A stretch of 64,000 bases of DNA from Gammaproteobacteria bacterium (GTDB lineage Bacteria > Pseudomonadota > Gammaproteobacteria > Arenicellales > JAJDZL01). Positions within the stretch are counted from its first letter, which is position 1. The number at the start of each line of letters is the position of its first letter. The notes beneath the pieces were generated by a model. That model saw only the letters and a program-made list of their open reading frames with translations. It searched no databases and was not told where the DNA came from. The translations under genes were made by a program, and so were the position numbers. The DNA is taken from the NCBI GenBank assembly GCA_022823625.1, contig JAJEHQ010000024.1, positions 124,001 through 188,000 of the forward strand. The letters are read 5' to 3'. Below are positions 7,956 through 18,967 of the stretch, in pieces.

Positions 7956-8136
7956 AATTTCCTGAGTTTATCGATTCGTATTGATAACATGTTGATTTAG
8001 TTATATTCGTTACAAATAATACTGCATTTCGAACCCCTGCAATTTTTCGGTAAATTCTGCTGTTATTTCAACTCGAGTGGTTGCTTGTCCCAATCAAGCC
8101 CAATCATCCGACAGATATTCTACGCAAACAAAGTTT

Positions 8137-11100
8137 ATGAAACAAAACCAAACTAATCGAGAAGTAATTTCACAAGCAATTGAATTGGCGGCTGAAATGG
8201 GACCGCAGCAGACCGATGGAGAGTGGTTGGAGAAACTTATTGAAGACACGGCAGAATTGATTAAGGACTGGGATATAGCGAAATGCCAGCCGTGGGCAAA
8301 CTGGGACGACCGCAAGCGCCACTTTCCAGAATCGACTGAAAAGGACTTGGGCATTGATCTAGTGGCAGTCCGTCGTAGCGACGGTGAATTCATAGCTATT
8401 CAGAGTAAATCTCGTCAGCTAGACGAATCAAACAGTGGGAGTTCGATTAGCTTTGATGAATTAAGTACTTTTATTGGATTGTCCGCGACGGATTTTTGGG
8501 CTGAACGCTGGGTTGTCACAAATGGGAACTGTCGATTTGGTGACAACCTAAAACATGTTAGCTCAATAACTCACAAACCAATCAAACTAGTCAACATCGT
8601 AAATGATCTTTTGCAACAACAAACTCCATATACAGTCGAAGTATGCGCTCATTGTGAGCCTCACACTGAAGGAGAAGAATTTGCGAAACAAACAAAAACC
8701 TGTATGCAGTCAGAGGCTATCGACACGAGCGTACGCCTGCTTAGGAAACATGCTCAGTCAAAAAGTGGAGGCCTTCCGGTTGGTCAGGCACGTGGCAAGA
8801 TTATTCTTCCATGCGGCACAGGAAAAACTCGAATTTCATTACGCATAATTGAGCAATTGACACCTCAAAGGGGCTTGTCAATTGTTATGTGTCCCTCAAT
8901 CGCACTTGTTGCTCAAATCAGGAGTGAGTATCTACAGAATGCTGAAGTTAGTATTCGTGCACTTGCTGTATGCTCAGATAAAACTGCAGGATACGACCCC
9001 CAAAAAGAAAGTTCTCGGAATACGGCAAAAGATCCTACATTGGACAACAGCAACGTCAGTGCGTCGGATGTAAAAGGTAAAGTTACGACAGATTCATATG
9101 AAATTGCACAGTGGATCAAGCAAGGAATTGGTACAAATCAAGTTAGCGTAGTTTTCGGAACTTATCAAAGTGGAAGAGCGATTGCAAATTCACTCGAAAA
9201 ATGTGGTGAATCGATTGACGTTCTTGTGGCGGATGAAGCACATAGGACAGCCGGAATAAGACGGAAACGACGGACTATTAGTGCAAAACTTACAGAAGAG
9301 GAAGAACGTATTCGTGACTTCACGCTGTGCCACGACAACAAAGCCTTTCCAGCTAAATTTCGAATTTATCAAACGGCAACTCCTCGCATATTTGACACTA
9401 GTAAAGTTACAGCCGATAAAGAAAGCGCTTGGATTGTCCGAACGATGGATGATGAAAACATATTTGGTGTTGAACTTTATCGCAAGAGTTATGTAGAGGC
9501 TGTTGAAAACGGTTGGCTATCTGACTATCGAATTATTGCGCTGGGTACTAATGACCCGACTACTTACAAAGCTGCCTATAAGCTAGCTATAAGCACACAA
9601 AGTAAAGGTCGACGCCGCCTAACTTCCGCTGACTACCTCCGAGGACTTGCATTCACCTTGGCCATGGGTGGCGCCACCCAGAATCAAAAAGAGGATGATG
9701 TTCACATTCAATCTTGCATTGCATTTATGAATACGGTAGACAAATCAAAGAATATGGCGGAAGACCTGCAAACAGATGTAGTGCGAAATTGGCTTCAGAA
9801 TTGGATGGACGAAAATCAGAGTGGGAAGCAGGCATTGCAGTTCTCACTTGAGCATCTTGATGCTACTAGCAATGTAGTGGCACGAAAAAATGCAATACGT
9901 CGTCTAGGAGAAGCTCACCCAGACAAACCGTATGGAATAATTAATGTCGGCATTTTCGGGGAAGGAACTGACTCTCCGTCATTAAATGCGGTAGCCTTTC
10001 TTGAATCTAGGAGGAGTCCAGTTGATGTCGTACAGGCAGTAGGTCGTGCAATGCGAACCGCTCCAGGTAAGCAATTTGGCTACATTATTTGTCCTATTCT
10101 TATCCCACCAAATGTAGTTCCGGAAGATTGGATAAGCTCCAGTGCTCCTGAGGAAGGTTGGCAGGAATTGGGACAGATATTGCGAGCTCTACGTGCTCAT
10201 GACAGTCGTATTGAAGATGAACTGACTGAATTGATGCAACTCTATCTCCCAGCATCGCCAGAGGAGATACACACCATTATCGCGATCGCTGAGCACGAAA
10301 AGAAACGAATCAAATACCGCTTGCATGTTGGAGCGCCGGGTGATTCACAAATCGCGGTGGAACGCGTGTTGACGGGTCAAACTACAGTAGATGAAGAATT
10401 TCTGCCGATTTCAGAAGTGAATTCGTTACCAAAACCCTCTGGAGTACAGACTGCCATCCTTGAACCAACATTGGTTGTTGCAGGCAAGAGTAATGAAGAC
10501 AAGAGTATCGAAGTAAGAATGGATAGTGTCGCAAGAGACAAACCCTCATCTGATGGTATGCCGGGTAAAGTAGACATGGATAAAACCAAGAAGAAAGCCA
10601 GGGATATGATCAACAAAGGCACCGGTACGCGATTACCAACTGGAGAAAAGAAGGAAAAAAGGAAACGCAGGACTCACCAGGAAATTGTAGAAGATTCCGC
10701 CCAGCAAATGCTAAAGATGACTCGTCTTGATAAATTTGGGGATTCCATTAAGATGAATTTACTGTCGAAATCGGGACTGATTCACAACCGAATAGTCAGA
10801 GACCTCAACATTTTGGAAGACAGCATCAAGGAAGCTGCCCTGCATCTGCGGGGAGACGAACTTGCGCCGACATTAAACCGACACTTCGGGTTGACAAACT
10901 TAAAATCAGCGGCACAAAAAAAGCAGGCCGATGGTGTCACAATTTCCTCATTATTGATGATGAACGCAGCGATGCTACATCAGCGAATCGCGCATGGTCA
11001 CTGGTTAAGTGGAGTTAGCGATTTATCTTCCATAAAGAACGATGTCAATGTGGTAACAAAATTGCGCCGGGAGTGGGAACGGATAATGCGGCATGATTTT

Positions 11101-13191
11101 CGGCCAGTTTTAGAGCCAGCAGTTGGAATCATCGAAACAGTAGAGGATACTGGGAAACTAGCGGGAATGGAGCGAGCACTTCGTCATATTGCATCTGAGG
11201 CAGAACGAATAGCCGAGACCTACGCTGATATGGGTGCTGACCACGCAGGTCCACTGTTTAACCGAGTAATGGGCAATCAGGCTAGCGATGGAGCTTACTT
11301 CACTAGACCCACTGCAGCATCCATAGCTGCGCGTCTGACACTTGATGCTTATGGTAATGTCGATTGGACCGATTCAAATGTTTGGCGAAATTGTAAGATT
11401 GTTGATCTTGCTTGCGGCAGTGGGACATTGCTGGCTGCTATCTTGACTCAAATGAAACACCGTGCAAGGGAAAAGAAAGTTGACGAATTTGAGATTGCTG
11501 GTCTTCAGAAAATTGCAGTTGAAGACAGCATCAAAGGGCTCGATATCAATCCGGTTTCACTACAGTTAGCTGCATCGCAACTGACCGCGGGAAATCAAGA
11601 TATTCGCTATCGGTCAATGGGATTACATCTGATGCCTTACGGTCCTTCAAAAGACAATACTGCTGTCGTGTCAGCTGGCACACTGGAGTTACTGGGACAA
11701 AAGGCAATAGTACCCAGAGTTGGAGAAGTCAACCTTTCGGACGAACAAATCGAATCGCAACACATTTGGGAGGTAAATCGGGACGCAGAATTAGAAGATG
11801 CAGTGGATGCTGTCAGCAATGCTCAAATCGTAATCATGAACCCACCTTTTACTAACCGAACGAGTATGGGTGAAAAATTTCCAAAAGGCGTTCAAAAGCA
11901 GTTGCGTTCTCGAGCAGACGCTATGGAAAATGTTTTGGTGGATAACGATTCACAGATGGAAAAATTTGTAGATAAGAACTCCATTAGACCGCTTTTCGTG
12001 GCATTAGCTGATAGGTGCCTCGATAAATTCAATGGAATTTTAACGATGGTAATTCCGACTACTGCACTCTCAGCGCCATCTGGACTACACGAAAGGGTGT
12101 TGTTGGCTCAACGGTACCACATTCACAGTATTGTTACCTGTCATTTGCCAGGTCAAATAAACATGAGTCAAAATACCAATATCAATGAGAGTATTGTCAT
12201 TGCTAAGAGAACTACAAAAAACGATTCAACTCCAACCAGGATCGTTAATCTCGACCGTTTTCCAATCGATGAAAAAGAAGTTACCGACTTACACAATTGC
12301 ATTCTTCATTGTGGTGTAGGTGCTATTGCTAATGGTTGGGGAGAAATTTCGGAATGGCCTGCTGAGCGGATTAATGTCGGCGACTGGTCTGCAGCAATAT
12401 GGCGCTCGCCAAAATTGGCTGAAGTAGCCGCGAGGTTTGCGAATGAATATAAATTGAAATCAATCTCCGAATCTGGATTCTCACCTGCAGCAACTGGTCA
12501 AACGCTGCGTGGGTCTTATCAACATGTGGATGCTGGGACCCCAGGTAGTTTTCCAATATTAAAGTCTAAAGGCGCAGAAGGCCAAACATTTATCGAGAGT
12601 CGGCCAGATGAATTTTGGATGCCTAAACCCAAAATTGAGCAAGAGGAAAATGAATACTTATATGGCCTGAACAAATCAACTCCTGAAAATGACAAGATCT
12701 TGGAAAAGGCCAGTCATCTTTTGGTCACAGCTGGGCAAAGAAATAGCACAGCGAGACTGACTGCTACAGCGAGTAATGAGAAATATGTTGGCAATGGTTG
12801 GATTCCGGTTGAAGGGTTAACTCCCGATGAAGGCAAAGCATTAGCAGTTTTCATTAACTCAACTATTGGTCGTCTGCAACTGATGCGCTATCCTGGTAGA
12901 TCATTGGAGTTTCCAACATACAGTACAACTGAAGTTGGAAACCTTAAGATTCCCGATATCAGAAATGATCGCATCCGACGTTTATTGCTAAACTGTTGGG
13001 AACTAACAAAGGATTTGAAGGTACCTCAATTTCGAGATGGTGAATGTGAAGTACGTCAGCTATGGGATGAAGCGGTTGCTACCGTACTAAATTTGGACTT
13101 ACAAGAATTGGCAAAATTGCGAACACTGTTAAATGACGAGCCGCACGTACGAGGTCGAGGTTATAACCAATTCACTGATGAATCTGAGTAG
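8137..13191 (+). CDS. Single-chain type ISP-like restriction-modification enzyme
   Basis: A 1684-residue protein combining nuclease, translocase and methyltransferase, as in LlaGI/LlaBIII-type ISP enzymes. From the ATG at 8137: Mrr-like nuclease with D74 (GIDLVAV) and Q89-S-K91; superfamily 2 helicase with Walker A CGTGKT near residue 225, DEAHRTAG near 366, and FGEGTDSPSLN plus QAVGRAMR near 633; then a helical coupler, an N6-adenine methyltransferase with GAYFTRP near 1053, DLACGSGTLL near 1090 and NPPF near 1235; and a C-terminal target-recognition region. Such enzymes methylate one strand of an asymmetric site and cut between head-to-head sites after translocation. The frame is open back to a GTG at 8077, so a start 20 codons earlier is possible; neither start has a strong ribosome site. 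No separate subunits are nearby. Confidence 0.85.
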   Translation: MKQNQTNREVISQAIELAAEMGPQQTDGEWLEKLIEDTAELIKDWDIAKCQPWANWDDRKRHFPESTEKDLGIDLVAVRRSDGEFIAIQSKSRQLDESNSGSSISFDELSTFIGLSATDFWAERWVVTNGNCRFGDNLKHVSSITHKPIKLVNIVNDLLQQQTPYTVEVCAHCEPHTEGEEFAKQTKTCMQSEAIDTSVRLLRKHAQSKSGGLPVGQARGKIILPCGTGKTRISLRIIEQLTPQRGLSIVMCPSIALVAQIRSEYLQNAEVSIRALAVCSDKTAGYDPQKESSRNTAKDPTLDNSNVSASDVKGKVTTDSYEIAQWIKQGIGTNQVSVVFGTYQSGRAIANSLEKCGESIDVLVADEAHRTAGIRRKRRTISAKLTEEEERIRDFTLCHDNKAFPAKFRIYQTATPRIFDTSKVTADKESAWIVRTMDDENIFGVELYRKSYVEAVENGWLSDYRIIALGTNDPTTYKAAYKLAISTQSKGRRRLTSADYLRGLAFTLAMGGATQNQKEDDVHIQSCIAFMNTVDKSKNMAEDLQTDVVRNWLQNWMDENQSGKQALQFSLEHLDATSNVVARKNAIRRLGEAHPDKPYGIINVGIFGEGTDSPSLNAVAFLESRRSPVDVVQAVGRAMRTAPGKQFGYIICPILIPPNVVPEDWISSSAPEEGWQELGQILRALRAHDSRIEDELTELMQLYLPASPEEIHTIIAIAEHEKKRIKYRLHVGAPGDSQIAVERVLTGQTTVDEEFLPISEVNSLPKPSGVQTAILEPTLVVAGKSNEDKSIEVRMDSVARDKPSSDGMPGKVDMDKTKKKARDMINKGTGTRLPTGEKKEKRKRRTHQEIVEDSAQQMLKMTRLDKFGDSIKMNLLSKSGLIHNRIVRDLNILEDSIKEAALHLRGDELAPTLNRHFGLTNLKSAAQKKQADGVTISSLLMMNAAMLHQRIAHGHWLSGVSDLSSIKNDVNVVTKLRREWERIMRHDFRPVLEPAVGIIETVEDTGKLAGMERALRHIASEAERIAETYADMGADHAGPLFNRVMGNQASDGAYFTRPTAASIAARLTLDAYGNVDWTDSNVWRNCKIVDLACGSGTLLAAILTQMKHRAREKKVDEFEIAGLQKIAVEDSIKGLDINPVSLQLAASQLTAGNQDIRYRSMGLHLMPYGPSKDNTAVVSAGTLELLGQKAIVPRVGEVNLSDEQIESQHIWEVNRDAELEDAVDAVSNAQIVIMNPPFTNRTSMGEKFPKGVQKQLRSRADAMENVLVDNDSQMEKFVDKNSIRPLFVALADRCLDKFNGILTMVIPTTALSAPSGLHERVLLAQRYHIHSIVTCHLPGQINMSQNTNINESIVIAKRTTKNDSTPTRIVNLDRFPIDEKEVTDLHNCILHCGVGAIANGWGEISEWPAERINVGDWSAAIWRSPKLAEVAARFANEYKLKSISESGFSPAATGQTLRGSYQHVDAGTPGSFPILKSKGAEGQTFIESRPDEFWMPKPKIEQEENEYLYGLNKSTPENDKILEKASHLLVTAGQRNSTARLTATASNEKYVGNGWIPVEGLTPDEGKALAVFINSTIGRLQLMRYPGRSLEFPTYSTTEVGNLKIPDIRNDRIRRLLLNCWELTKDLKVPQFRDGECEVRQLWDEAVATVLNLDLQELAKLRTLLNDEPHVRGRGYNQFTDESE

Positions 13192-13630: not shown

Positions 13631-13848
13631 AATCCGACACCAATCTCGTCCACTGGCTGGAAACCAATGACTTCTTGCTCGAAAATTCTCAAAACAATAC
13701 GATTCGAACGAATTTGAAGCTGATGCGGTCGCAAAAAGACTGTTTCCGCGGATCTCGTCTCGATCAGATTGTGCATGCCTGTTGGCCACCTGTCGAGATT
13801 CTGCACCCATGGCCGAATACTCGGTTTGCCGTCAATCACTCAAGGTAG

Positions 13849-13880
13849 GAGCCGTATGCGTTAACGCGCACGTACGGATC
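13849..13880 (+). ncRNA. Group II intron domain V-like hairpin (left part of a split intron tail)
   Basis: The 32 bases begin GAGCCGTAT, contain the AGC catalytic triad, and end CGTACGGATC. They fold as domain V: an eight-pair lower stem with one G-A mismatch, a two-base CG bulge and a short upper stem. The following TGTGCGGGGA is the start of a domain VI-like hairpin, whose other half appears at 15606, after an IS110-family element. No intron-encoded reverse transcriptase and no 5' intron domains were recognised upstream, so this is a fragment. The upper stem is slightly shorter than in well-known introns. Confidence 0.5.
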
Positions 13881-13998
13881 TGTGCGGGGACTTCCTACCA
13901 TTTTACAAGTCCGATATGGCGGTAAAGTATCCGTCAAAATAGCGAATTCCAAAACTGCTGGCTGATTCGACATTGATATAGGTCGGGGTCTCATAAGA

Positions 13999-15237
13999 TT
14001 AAGCAGCAATGTTAAGATTTTTCGAATCCGCATTGAATTCGGTTTGATTTCTCAGCATTGCGCATGCGACATTGAGGAGCCGGTCTCCAACACTTCTGAG
14101 CGCCCGGGCATGCGAATGTCCCCGTGCACGCAGTGTGGTATATTTGGCTTTGCTGATTTCCTCATGTTGCGAGGCGCTGTGCGCCCAATAATGGATGGCA
14201 TTGCGCAGCCGGTCGTTGCAGGCGAGCCTGCGAATGACCCGATTGGATTTTCCCGAACGTTTGGTCACCGGGGCCACGCCACACAGGCATCTGAGTGCCT
14301 GAAAGTCGCGCCGCTGCAACGGATTGAAGGCTTCGGCAAGCAGCGTGGCGAGGACGATTCGTCCGACCCCTGGAATTGAGGACAGGATGGCCACGTCACG
14401 CTGCCAGTCTATTCCCGTTTCATCCGGTGGTGACCGGGTCAACTGTTCGATCAGCTCGTCTATGCGTCGGTTGATGTTCTGGGTCTGGTTCTGATTCAAT
14501 TCAAGCTGATCAAAAGCAACCTTGAGACTCGTACACACCGCCTGCTCGGTGCCGGCTGCGACCTGGATGGCAGGGTCTTTGAGGATGTTCAACACCTGCT
14601 GAGTACTGATTCTGCGGATTCGGTGCTTTTTCAGCAGTTTTTCAACGGTCGTCTTTCTGAGGTGCCTGGCGCGTGCCGGCGTCGGTGCGAGCTGCCACAG
14701 CTGTCTGATCCACGGCCTGGACAGATCTTTTGCCAGATCAAGGAACTGCGGATAGTAGCGCCACAGCAGCTGGCCGATCCGGTTAACCAGGCGAACCCGG
14801 TCCTTGGTCAGCTCATCTGCGATGCGGCTCAGCTCTCGCAGCTCAACTATTTCGGCTGAGCTGGGCTGCAGATAACGGTAGCAATGCCTATCGGTACGAA
14901 GGCTGATGGCCAGCACCTGCGCATCGAGGCGGTCATCCTTGGCACCGGCCGGTGAGATGCGGTCGCGAAACCGGTCCAACTGCTTCGGATTGATCGAATG
15001 CACAGCAAAACTGCGCTCCATCAGGGTTTCCACCACCGGGCCATGAGGGATCTCAATGCCAACCGCAACTGCCGCATCGCCCGTGTTGTTCGAAATCCAC
15101 TCTGTGAGCTCGTTCAATCCTTTACCGCCGTGCGAAAATCCACGTTCTGCCACGATGGCACCCTCACCATTGATCAGGCAGGCCTGGTGCAGCTCTCGTC
15201 CCCAGTCAACGCCAACGAAAAATTCGTACTCATTCAT
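13999..15237 (-). CDS. IS110-family transposase (DEDD recombinase)
   Basis: A 412-residue recombinase. The N-terminal RuvC-like DEDD domain shows VGVDWG near residue 10, GIEIPHG near 62, and AKDDRLDAQ near 100 with the last two aspartates. The C-terminal transposase_20 domain shows SIPGVG and then CGVAPVTKRSGKSN, which holds the candidate catalytic serine. These enzymes insert DNA guided by a structured bridge RNA. The chosen ATG at 15237 has a strong ribosome site (AGGAGAGAGG) just upstream; the open frame extends 18 codons further but without one. The gene is uninterrupted, so the element may still be active. It interrupts a group II intron tail. Confidence 0.93.
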   Translation of the reverse strand: MNEYEFFVGVDWGRELHQACLINGEGAIVAERGFSHGGKGLNELTEWISNNTGDAAVAVGIEIPHGPVVETLMERSFAVHSINPKQLDRFRDRISPAGAKDDRLDAQVLAISLRTDRHCYRYLQPSSAEIVELRELSRIADELTKDRVRLVNRIGQLLWRYYPQFLDLAKDLSRPWIRQLWQLAPTPARARHLRKTTVEKLLKKHRIRRISTQQVLNILKDPAIQVAAGTEQAVCTSLKVAFDQLELNQNQTQNINRRIDELIEQLTRSPPDETGIDWQRDVAILSSIPGVGRIVLATLLAEAFNPLQRRDFQALRCLCGVAPVTKRSGKSNRVIRRLACNDRLRNAIHYWAHSASQHEEISKAKYTTLRARGHSHARALRSVGDRLLNVACAMLRNQTEFNADSKNLNIAA

Positions 15238-15291
15238 GATCCTCTCTCCTGAATAAAGCAAACTGAAACATCCACCAGGCTCGGCTGCCAC

Positions 15292-15544
15292 AGCGCTTGA
15301 TCCGGTCCCTGTACTGGTGCTCCAGGCACAAACTTCCTACTGGGCTTCCACTGCGGCGAACAATCGAGGCACAGGTCCCCCCAAGGTGCTCAACAAAGGC
15401 ACAGGGGGAGTAGGTTGCTCTCGACTGTTGGCCTGCATCAGTTGATATTTCAACATTGATAAGGTTGTCAATACTGAAGTCTGACACCAGGCCATTTCGC
15501 TTTCCACTTCGTGCTCCGCACTCCGTTCCAAGTGAAATGGCCTG
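15292..15544 (-). ncRNA. Candidate bridge RNA of the IS110-family element
   Basis: The leader of the transposase gene is long, non-coding and structured. Reading the minus strand from 15544, a perfect 11-bp stem (arms 15534-15544 and 15488-15498, CAGGCCATTTC) encloses a second stem (CACTT/AAGTG) and a small GTGC-GGA-GCAC hairpin; this nested stem with large internal loops is what a bridge RNA guide loop looks like. Downstream there are two copies of GGCACAGG and further pairing potential towards the transposase start. The loop sequence GGAGTGCGG (minus strand of 15516-15524) matches 8 of 9 bases of the insertion-site flank GGAGTGTGG (15608-15616). Boundaries are approximate and transcription is not shown. 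Confidence 0.45.
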
Positions 15545-15605
15545 AAACTTCAATAAAGGTATAACTGATAATGGTAAGTCGATTAGTACCGGGATAAATG
15601 GTACA

Positions 15606-15633
15606 GGGGAGTGTGGCAACATGCTTCCCTACC
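15606..15633 (+). other. Right part of a split group II intron domain VI-like hairpin
   Basis: GGGGAGTGT and ACATGCTTCCC pair around a short GGCA loop, and the sequence continues CTACCGCGAC, as seen at 3' ends of some bacterial group II introns. Placed after the domain V-like hairpin ending at 13880 and TGTGCGGGGA, it completes the intron tail. The IS110-family element lies between the two halves. The exact 3' splice point is not determined. Confidence 0.4.
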
Positions 15634-15827: not shown

Positions 15828-16109
15828 GTGATTGTCAGCTTTGCAAACAAGAAAACGAAGGTCTTTTACGACGGCATGCGCGTTGCAGCGTACTCTGGTT
15901 TCGCACGAACTGCTTCACGCAAACTGGATCAATTGGATTCCGCGATCAGTATTAACGACCTCGATAGGCCAGGTAATCATCTTAAGTTACTCAAAGGGAA
16001 TCGTAAAGGACAATGGAGCATTCGCATTAATGATCAGTGGAGGCTTTGTTTCAGGTGGCCCGAAGACAGCTCAGGGCCGACGGATGTTGAAATTGTGGAC
16101 TATCATTAG
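15828..16109 (+). CDS. higB: HigB-family toxin (RelE/ParE superfamily mRNA interferase)
   Basis: A 93-residue protein of standard HigB size. The N-terminal IVSFANKKTKVFYDG, the central RPGNHLKLLKGNRKGQWSI stretch and the closing INDQWRLCFRW ... VEIVDYH are the family pattern of RelE-fold toxins that cut mRNA on the ribosome. The start is GTG at 15828 with a purine-rich GAAGGGG directly before it. It precedes higA by 17 bases, toxin first, the usual order for HigBA. A promoter with a perfect -10 is present upstream. The gene looks intact. Confidence 0.9.
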   Translation: MIVSFANKKTKVFYDGMRVAAYSGFARTASRKLDQLDSAISINDLDRPGNHLKLLKGNRKGQWSIRINDQWRLCFRWPEDSSGPTDVEIVDYH

Positions 16110-16126
16110 AATTGAGGAAGCTTGCT

Positions 16127-16432
16127 ATGCGTGAACCCATCCATCCCGGCGAGACGTTGCGAGAGGACCTTGACGAGCTCGGTATGAGTGCGGCCGAATT
16201 GGCGCGTCAGATTGAGGTTCCAGTGAACCGCATCACTGAGATTCTCAACGGTCGGCGTTCAATAACCGGTGATACGGCCTTGAGACTAGGGCGATACTTT
16301 GGAACTTCTGGAGAGTTTTGGCTCAACCTCCAAAAACTCTACGAATTGCGTTTGGCACAGGAAAAAATTGGAGCAGAAATTATCCAGTTGCCGACGCTTG
16401 ATGCGAGTAAGGGTCTGCGTGCGGCAAATTGA
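16127..16432 (+). CDS. higA: HigA-family antitoxin (XRE-type HTH)
   Basis: A 101-residue helix-turn-helix protein starting MREPIHPGETL, the standard HigA opening. The XRE domain covers about residues 20-70 (MSAAELARQIEVPVNRITE ... GDTALRLGRYFG) and ends with the FWLNLQKLYEL motif typical of HigA. It neutralises HigB and represses the operon. The ATG at 16127 has a good ribosome site (GAGGAAG) at 16113-16119, better than the in-frame TTG at 16112. With intact higB it is probably a functional module. Confidence 0.92.
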   Translation: MREPIHPGETLREDLDELGMSAAELARQIEVPVNRITEILNGRRSITGDTALRLGRYFGTSGEFWLNLQKLYELRLAQEKIGAEIIQLPTLDASKGLRAAN

Positions 16433-16718: not shown

Positions 16719-17324
16719 TTGAAACGAGAAACATTGCGAGATCGGGCTTTGGGATTAGCACTTAGCGGTGAGATACTGCGGGCTAAAGACTTTTATGCTG
16801 CAGGTGTGCCGCATACGTATCTGCGGCGGCTTCAGGATGAGGGTGTGATATTGCGAATAGGACGCGGTATCTATCAATACGCAGAAGCAGAAATATCCGC
16901 TTCGCACAGTCTGGCAATGGTGTCGAAAGTGATTCCACACGGTGTAATCTGCCTTCTGTCAGCACTCCAGTTCCACGTGTTGACCACTCAACTGCCACAC
17001 CAGGTTTGGGTGTTTATTGAACATGGCAGATGGACTCCTCTGAGTTCACCCGTGTCGTTGCGGGTCATTCGTTCCAGTTCTGAATCACTTTCGGTAGGTT
17101 TGGAGCGCCATAGGATCGAAGGGGTATCGGTGCCAATTACAATTCCAGCCAAAACGGTTGCCGATTGTTTCAAGCATCGAAACAAGGTGGGGACTGATGT
17201 TGCGATTGAAGCACTGAAGGAATGTCTATCTCGTAAACAAGCCACTGTCGACGAAATCTGGCGGTTTGCGGAAATCAATCGAGTAGCCAGTGTTATGAGA
17301 CCGTATTTCGAAGCCATCGTATGA
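16719..17324 (+). CDS. abiEi: AbiEi-family antitoxin/transcriptional regulator
   Basis: A 201-residue protein with the AbiEi layout: an N-terminal winged helix (about residues 15-60: AKDFYAAGVPHTYLRRL, GRGIYQYA) and a C-terminal antitoxin domain beginning PHGVICLLSALQFHVLTTQLP near 85 and containing IPAKTVADCFKHRNKVG. It is the antitoxin of a type IV toxin-antitoxin system and normally controls its own promoter; a perfect inverted repeat lies just upstream. The start is TTG. The stop overlaps the ATG of the toxin gene by four bases (ATGA), the normal arrangement, but that toxin gene is destroyed, leaving an orphan regulator. Confidence 0.88.
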   Translation: MKRETLRDRALGLALSGEILRAKDFYAAGVPHTYLRRLQDEGVILRIGRGIYQYAEAEISASHSLAMVSKVIPHGVICLLSALQFHVLTTQLPHQVWVFIEHGRWTPLSSPVSLRVIRSSSESLSVGLERHRIEGVSVPITIPAKTVADCFKHRNKVGTDVAIEALKECLSRKQATVDEIWRFAEINRVASVMRPYFEAIV

Positions 17325-18336: not shown

Positions 18337-18573
18337 ATGACTATATGGGAAATAACGATACCAGAAACGACTGATCGTGCAGTCCGGGACTTTCTTGATC
18401 GCAATGGTGAAGGTGCTCAGAATCTGTCCGAATTTGTTAATGCCGCTGTGCGCCGCCGGGTTTTTGAATTAACAGTTTCAAAAATCAAAGAAAGAAATGC
18501 TAATTTTGATCAGAACGAAATTCAGGCATTGATTGACGAGGAGGTTCGCACCGTCAGTGAGACTCGTTCTTGA
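18337..18573 (+). CDS. Ribbon-helix-helix-type antitoxin partner of a PIN toxin
   Basis: A 78-residue protein starting MTIWEITIPETTDRAVRDFL, a strand-helix pattern of CopG/ParD-like ribbon-helix-helix regulators, with NLSEFVNAAVRRRVFEL as the second helix (about residues 30-47) and a charged C-terminal helix that would wrap the toxin. It precedes a PIN-domain gene and overlaps it by 17 bases, the usual antitoxin-first type II order. The ATG at 18337 is preferred over the upstream alternative, which would add a meaningless hydrophobic start. The specific antitoxin family is not certain. Confidence 0.75.
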   Translation: MTIWEITIPETTDRAVRDFLDRNGEGAQNLSEFVNAAVRRRVFELTVSKIKERNANFDQNEIQALIDEEVRTVSETRS

Positions 18574-18967
18574 TACGAACATCCTCATCAGTGCCTTAAT
18601 CACTAAGGGAACTTCGCCTGACAGTTTGTATCAAGCGTGGTTGAACGGTGAGATAGAAGTTGTAACCACAAATGTGCAGATTGCTGAACTCAGGCGCGTA
18701 TTGGCACGACCTAAACTGAAAAGGTTTATACGTGCCGAGGAAGTGGCCACAATGCTTCAACACATTGACGGATATGCTCATATACTTGCTGATGTTCCGG
18801 AAGTAGAAATATCTTCCGACCCTGATGACAATCCAATTGTGGCTGCTGCTATAGCTGGAAATGTTGATATGATCGTGTCTGGTGACAAAAAACACATGCT
18901 TGTACTCGGCGAGGTTCAGGGAATACCGGTTATGAACGCTCGTGATGCGGCGAAGAAACTCACTTAA
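18557..18967 (+). CDS. PIN-domain toxin (putative ribonuclease)
   Basis: A 136-residue PIN-fold protein. The start strand MRLVLDTNILISAL carries the first catalytic aspartate (D6), IAELRRVL gives the acidic second site, and SSDPDDNPIVAAAIAGN followed by IVSGDKKH gives the remaining metal-binding acids. PIN toxins of this COG1569-like group cut RNA when freed from the antitoxin. GTG at 18557 is chosen because the protein then begins exactly as family members do; an earlier in-frame start would add eight residues. It overlaps the antitoxin by 17 bases. All key residues are present, so the pair may be active. Confidence 0.85.
   Translation: MRLVLDTNILISALITKGTSPDSLYQAWLNGEIEVVTTNVQIAELRRVLARPKLKRFIRAEEVATMLQHIDGYAHILADVPEVEISSDPDDNPIVAAAIAGNVDMIVSGDKKHMLVLGEVQGIPVMNARDAAKKLT

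What the first reader, a model, noticed from the sequence alone, without database searches (positions are those of the whole stretch)
15238..15605. Candidate bridge RNA in front of the IS110-family transposase
The 370-base leader has a perfect 11-bp stem with nested internal stems and loops, as expected for a guide loop. GGAGTGCGG in the loop (minus strand of 15516-15524) differs at one of nine positions from the target flank GGAGTGTGG at 15608-15616. Bridge RNAs are established for IS110 recombinases; this one appears to have a readable target guide.
Basis: partly seen in the sequence, partly recalled or inferred. Interest (0 to 1): 0.6.

Follow-up and report, generated by a model that had tools for sequence, protein, structure and literature searches.

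The report
IS110 bridge RNA targeting C-tracts

Summary
A covariance model built only from eight relatives, without the window copy, hits the 64-kb window once: 15286-15433(-), 118.7 bits, E=4e-20. That segment holds all four expected guides in order: LTG CTACTCCCCC (15413-15404), RTG TTGGGGGG (15384-15377), LDG AGTAGGAAGT (15341-15332), RDG AGTACAGG (15315-15308). Across nine elements the guides fit their own target and donor DNA better than those of the others (0 of 100,000 permutations as good), and 20 of 28 stem pairs show compensatory changes. The element is 1.72 kb with CC cores at 15606-15607 and 13888-13889, with at least four copies in the genome. It inserts into C-runs; here it splits a group II intron between domains V and VI. 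It is a new member of a known kind; the C-tract target with mutually complementary target guides is its unusual trait.

The parts
13888..15607 (-). whole IS110-group element, CC core to CC core, 1720 bp
   Evidence: ends defined by other copies whose similarity stops at CC|TGTACC and AAGT|CC
13999..15237 (-). IS110 recombinase gene, 412 aa; DEDD and serine residues conserved
   Evidence: Pfam, NCBIfam, alignment to IS621 8wt6
15606..15607 (-). left CC core; left target flank follows at 15608 and up (C-run)
13888..13889 (-). right CC core; right target flank at 13887 and down (C-run)
15238..15607 (-). non-coding left end (370 nt) encoding the bridge RNA
15598..15603 (-). -10-like box TACCAT, left-end half of the circle-junction promoter
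   Evidence: 17-bp spacing to TTGTAA once RE and LE are joined across one CC; same spacing in nine elements
13903..13908 (-). -35-like box TTGTAA, right-end half of the circle-junction promoter
   Evidence: a hairpin in this position but of other sequence occurs in six relatives
15286..15433 (-). bridge RNA core: target-binding loop then donor-binding loop
   Evidence: covariance model made without the window: 118.7 bits, E=4.4e-20, only hit; covariation
15404..15413 (-). left target guide CTACTCCCCC
15377..15384 (-). right target guide TTGGGGGG, complementary to CCCCCCAA
15332..15341 (-). left donor guide AGTAGGAAGT against right-end GGTAGGAAGT (9/10)
15308..15315 (-). right donor guide AGTACAGG against left-end CCTGTACC (7/8)
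13847..13887 (+). group II intron domain V and G-run, the target interrupted by this copy; domain VI remnant continues at 15608-15633
   Evidence: RF00029 30.5 bits E=0.0014 (below gathering score of 40); unbroken introns in relatives

Best explanation
This is an IS110-group insertion sequence with a bridge RNA in its left end. When the element excises as a circle, a -35-like box in the right end and a -10-like box in the left end come together 17 bp apart across one CC core and would transcribe an RNA of about 300 nt (inferred). That RNA begins with a long 5' stem-loop and continues with a target-binding loop and a donor-binding loop. The donor loop pairs with the element's own ends (LDG with GGTAGGAAGT, RDG with CCTGTACC). 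The target loop pairs with C-runs (LTG CTACTCCC[CC]; RTG with [CC]CCCCAA). The recombinase then exchanges strands at the CC core and inserts the element. Shown here: the structure, the guide-DNA correspondence across relatives, the element ends and the C-run insertion sites. Inferred from the characterised relative IS621: expression, circle formation, RNA binding and recombination.
For: Transposase family and catalytic residues. A covariance model without the window copy finds 15286-15433(-) as its only hit in 64 kb, E=4.4e-20. Structure: 88.6% of cells paired against 75.0% shuffled and 32-49% when slid; 20 of 28 pairs with two-sided changes. Guides: cognate v non-cognate matches LT 7.67 v 4.69, RT 6.11 v 4.81, LD 8.89 v 6.97 (each 0/20,000 permutations), RD 7.11 v 6.50 (68/20,000), all four 0/100,000. 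Guide order and spacing (LT, +25 to 31, RT, +42 to 44, LD, +26 to 28, RD) hold wherever all four are located. Ends from at least four copies. Junction promoter with 17-bp spacing in all nine elements. The other junctions of this element sit in C-runs of 4-10, while the 64-kb window has a single C/G run of six or more, the guide itself.
Against: No RNA or activity data. The LTG does not match any one left target perfectly in fixed register: the C-run length differs by one or more bases between guide and flank. L047's LTG fits its own left target (5/10) worse than others' (8/10). No orthologous empty site for this copy was found; it was inferred from homologous introns. Swap-test elements are not all independent (L047/L049 share an LTG; L048/L050 are close relatives).
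Confidence: 0.95

Rival explanations
1. One reading: the 11-bp hairpin is the guide loop and GGAGTGCGG is the target guide for the flank at 15608-15616.
For: Stem and words exist.
Against: 18% chance rate; loop unchanged while flanks differ; wrong strand sense for an LTG; covariance model and donor pairing place both loops elsewhere; L048/L050 lack such a long hairpin but keep the guides.
Confidence: 0.02
2. The leader is mainly a structured 5' UTR that regulates transposase translation or blocks read-through transcription, and the guide matches are by-products.
For: Long hairpins of unrelated sequence recur between promoter and gene.
Against: Guides change together with target and donor across relatives; the stems covary around loops at fixed positions. 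A regulatory role of the 5' hairpin in addition to the bridge RNA is not excluded.
Confidence: 0.03
3. Preference for C-runs comes from the protein or from DNA structure (slippage, breaks) and not from LTG/RTG.
For: LTG fits only with a register slip; C-runs are unusual DNA.
Against: RTG GGGGGG fits, and extends past the run in two copies (CCCCCCAA); L018, with a similar protein (68%), has a different LTG and a matching non-C left target (TAAATTCC).
Confidence: 0.08

Closest known systems
IS621 bridge RNA and recombinase (IS110 group, Escherichia coli; PMC11208160, PMC11208158)
   Same: Bridge RNA in a long left end; promoter formed across the RE-LE circle junction; target loop before donor loop; LTG/LDG in the sense of the left DNA, RTG/RDG complementary to the right DNA; DEDD plus serine active site
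   Different: CC core instead of CT; left end 370 nt against 191 and predicted RNA near 300 nt against 177 because of a long 5' hairpin domain; target is a C-tract; recombinase only distantly similar (phmmer E=7e-9)
IS110-group elements of the same clade (L018, L047; Methylocystis, Roseibium and Sinorhizobium plasmid copies)
   Same: Same RNA scaffold, CC core and similar end sequences; L047 and the Methylocystis copy also sit in C-runs with G-run RTGs
   Different: L018, L048 and L050 have different left targets (GTAAATTCC, GGCGATACC, GGTGATCCC); L048/L050 lack the long 5' hairpin
IS1111-group elements / seekRNA (PMC11187229)
   Same: Related DEDD recombinase and RNA-guided target choice
   Different: There the long non-coding end is the right one; here the right end is 111 nt and the left end 370 nt

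Membership tests
IS110-group bridge RNA system | DEDD/RuvC-like plus Tnp (serine) recombinase | tested here: met
   Pfam, NCBIfam and IS621 alignment with the five catalytic residues
IS110-group bridge RNA system | Long non-coding left end upstream of the gene, short right end | tested here: met
   370 nt against 111 nt
IS110-group bridge RNA system | Structured RNA with target loop then donor loop, conserved by covariation | tested here: met
IS110-group bridge RNA system | LDG/RDG pair with the element's own ends | tested here: met
   LDG 9/10, RDG 7/8, changing with the ends across relatives
IS110-group bridge RNA system | LTG/RTG pair with the insertion target | tested here: met
   Family-wide swap tests 0/20,000 for both; for this element RTG 6-8 of 8, LTG with a register slip in the C-run
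IS110-group bridge RNA system | Promoter formed across the excised circle junction | tested here: met
   Sequence only: TTGTAA-17-TACCAT; transcription not measured
IS110-group bridge RNA system | RNA expressed, bound by the recombinase and needed for recombination | not testable with these tools
   Needs RNA-seq and in vitro recombination
IS110-group bridge RNA system | Handshake guide bases between loops and exchanged strands | not tested
   Described for IS621 in PMC11208158; not examined here
IS621 itself | CT core | tested here: not met
   Core is CC in all nine elements compared
IS1111 group | Long right end carrying the RNA | tested here: not met
   RNA is in the left end; right end 111 nt
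Rfam families | Match of the leader to a curated RNA family | tested here: not met
   No match for the leader at gathering score or E<=1

The most novel reading that the evidence does not exclude
A branch of IS110 elements is programmed against homopolymer C-tracts, so that its left and right target guides (CUCCCCC and GGGGGG) are complementary to each other and can close the target loop on itself. That loop would have to be opened, or may be self-inhibited, before target binding; the target register would be loose, and tract length would vary at the insertion sites.
Probability: 0.35. Interest if true: 0.5.

Novelty: new member of a known kind. Interest (0 to 1): 0.36.

Why it matters
It adds a divergent, apparently recently active IS110 element with its four guides and its ends worked out from sequence, plus relatives in which target and guide changed together. 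The C-tract target makes a testable question of how a bridge RNA works when its two target guides can pair with each other. It also warns that the most striking hairpin in an IS110 leader need not be the guide loop.

Tried and rejected
Rfam: no match for the leader at gathering score or E<=1. Scan of genome contigs with the protein: only one near-identical copy. Class- and phylum-wide searches of 369 and 399 genomes: one new relative. An orthologous empty site for this copy or the three other copies was not found in five genomes of the genus; unbroken copies of the same intron type were used instead. Intrinsic terminator role for the 5' hairpin: considered and set aside because no T-run follows it. 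A single-sequence fold of the 140-nt core alone is not better than shuffles (z=-1.2), so its folding energy was not used as evidence; covariation was. Literature searches for IS110 insertion into C-tracts or homopolymers returned nothing relevant in the open-access library; subscription papers and supplements were not searched.

Full report
WHAT IS AT THE COORDINATES. The transposase reads 15237 to 13999 on the minus strand and is a plain IS110 family enzyme. It aligns with IS621 (8wt6), and the residues IS621 uses for catalysis (D11, E60, D102, D105, S241; PMC11208158) have counterparts. The two nine-base words it compared are as quoted.

ELEMENT ENDS. The same genome holds near-identical ends at other places, where the assembly breaks inside the element. 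The left-end sequence CCTGTACCATTTATCCCGGTAC occurs five times without mismatch, one of them the orphan leader described below. The right-end sequence TTGTAAAATGGTAGGAAGTCC occurs four times. Similarity stops at CC|TGTACC on the left and AAGT|CC on the right. The element is therefore 13888-15607 with a CC core at each end, 1720 bp. A 99%-identical copy sits in a gammaproteobacterial MAG (L015).

The hairpin loop is identical in copies C33, C34 and C26, yet their flanks match GGAGTGCGG at only 4, 7 and 6 of nine positions. Random pairs of 25-nt flanks from the window match the loop at 8/9 or better in 18% of trials. The strand is also wrong: in IS110 systems the left target guide has the sense of the left target (PMC11208160).

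WHERE THE GUIDES ARE. Nine elements with both ends readable were compared: the window copy, L018 (68% identity), L047 (61%), L049 Methylocystis, L048 Roseibium, L050 Sinorhizobium, and L019, L020 and L025 from one genome of the same genus. An unguided search for the best match of each end in each leader puts left target, right target, left donor and right donor in that order with nearly constant spacing in most of them: window 194, 225, 267, 293; L018 201, 228, 270, 296; L048 72, 97, 140, 166; L019 92, 118, 162, 189; L020 211, 237, 279, 306. Single matches are often unremarkable against shuffles; the common order and the swap test carry the weight. With equal freedom to slide, each guide class fits its own DNA better than the others': LT 7.67 v 4.69 of 10, RT 6.11 v 4.81 of 7, LD 8.89 v 6.97 of 10 (0 of 20,000 permutations each), RD 7.11 v 6.50 of 8 (68 of 20,000), all together 0 of 100,000. 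Clear examples: L018 target GTAAATTCC with guide TTAAATTCC, right target CCCCACT with guide AGTGGGG, donor GGTAGGTAGT with identical guide; L048/L050 right donor CCTGTTC with guide GAACAGG; L019 CCTATAC with GTATAGG. L047 is an exception for the left target. Some elements are closely related, so the permutation counts are not strict probabilities.

STRUCTURE. On a 10-sequence alignment, four helices (target stem, target cap, donor stem, donor cap) have 88.6% of cells paired against 75.0% for shuffles and 32-49% when slid by 1-3 columns; 20 of 28 pairs show changes on both sides. A covariance model built from the eight relatives without the window copy or its near-identical kin finds 15286-15433(-) as the only hit in 64 kb at E up to 10 (118.7 bits, E=4.4e-20).

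THE HAIRPIN. Six of the other leaders carry a strong hairpin between promoter and target loop, with different sequence in most of them (in L019, L020 and L025 perfect 17-bp palindromic stems), while L048/L050 have only a short stem-loop. IS621 bridge RNA also starts with a 5' stem-loop (PMC11208160; left out of the structural scheme of PMC11208158). I read the hairpin as an enlarged 5' stem-loop domain, with shielding of the transposase from read-through transcription as an alternative or added role. This is inference.

PROMOTER. Joining RE, one CC and LE gives TTGTAA-17-TACCAT here, TTGACA-17-TACCAT in L019, L020 and L025, and TTTACA-17-TACCAT in L018. The 17-bp spacing in all nine supports CC as the core. 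Expression is predicted from the circle, as described for IS621.

TARGET. All known junctions of this element lie in C-runs...GTCTACCCCCC...CAGTCTGCCCCCCCCCC...AAACTACCCCC and ...CACACTCCCC on the left; CCCCCCAGATT, CCCCCCAACGC, CCCCCCAACAG and CCCCGCACAG on the right; L015 CCCCCCCCCC and CCCCTCAATC. The window has only one C/G run of six or more, and it is the right target guide itself. The right guide TTGGGGGG fits CCCCCCAA exactly in two copies. The left guide fits with a register slip, which may reflect tract slippage after insertion or loose selection. In the window the run belongs to a group II intron: domain V lies at 13847 onwards (RF00029, 30.5 bits, E=0.0014, below the gathering score because domain VI is split), and the joined flanks read through the D5-D6 linker into domain VI like unbroken introns of the genus, whose G-run is about 5-13 long. 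Six Gs in the inferred empty site equals the intron in L061. An orthologous empty site was not found.

ASSESSMENT. The finding is right in kind and wrong in detail. It is a new member of the IS110 bridge RNA systems. The C-tract target, with target guides that are complementary to each other (and pair with each other in the predicted fold), is the one feature a specialist may find unusual; no report of it was found in the open literature searched, which is weak evidence of absence.

Noticed in passing
L002 (own genome contig C42:80647-80972): Orphan IS110 leader without a transposase (what looks like an IS21-type gene fragment follows): its first 175 nt are 98% identical to the window leader, then identity drops to about 64-84% over most of the guide half, and it carries the L018-like donor guide GGTAGGTAGT. 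It looks like a mosaic in which the guide half was exchanged.
   Followed up: partly
L099 (own genome contig C9:83989-84137): A third, more diverged bridge-RNA-like match in the same genome (52.7 bits, E=2e-6); transposase not checked.
   Followed up: no
G005 (single-contig genome of the same genus; L019-L045, L091-L109): 18 bridge RNA model matches and 37 transposase matches or fragments in one genome; several leaders carry perfect 17-bp hairpins of unrelated sequence.
   Followed up: partly
L055, L059, L062, L065, L068, L070 (G005) and L061 (G001): Group II introns of this genus have a G-run of variable length (about 5 to 13) between domains V and VI, a ready C/G-tract target for such elements.
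   Followed up: partly
L046 (G062): 60%-identical IS110 relative whose leader is cut by other DNA; only the right donor guide half (AGTACAGGG) remains next to the gene.
   Followed up: no
window 8077-13191 (+): 1704-aa fused restriction endonuclease, helicase and N6-methyltransferase, type IIG-like (PADLOC E=4e-94).
   Followed up: partly
window 15828-16432 (+): HigB-like toxin and HTH antitoxin pair directly beside the intron and IS110 insertion.
   Followed up: no
window 16719-17324 (+): AbiEi-type antitoxin (PADLOC E=3e-79); an AbiEii partner was not looked for.
   Followed up: no
window 18533-18967 (+): PIN-domain protein (Pfam PIN_3 E=8e-21), probably the toxin of another toxin-antitoxin pair.
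   Followed up: no
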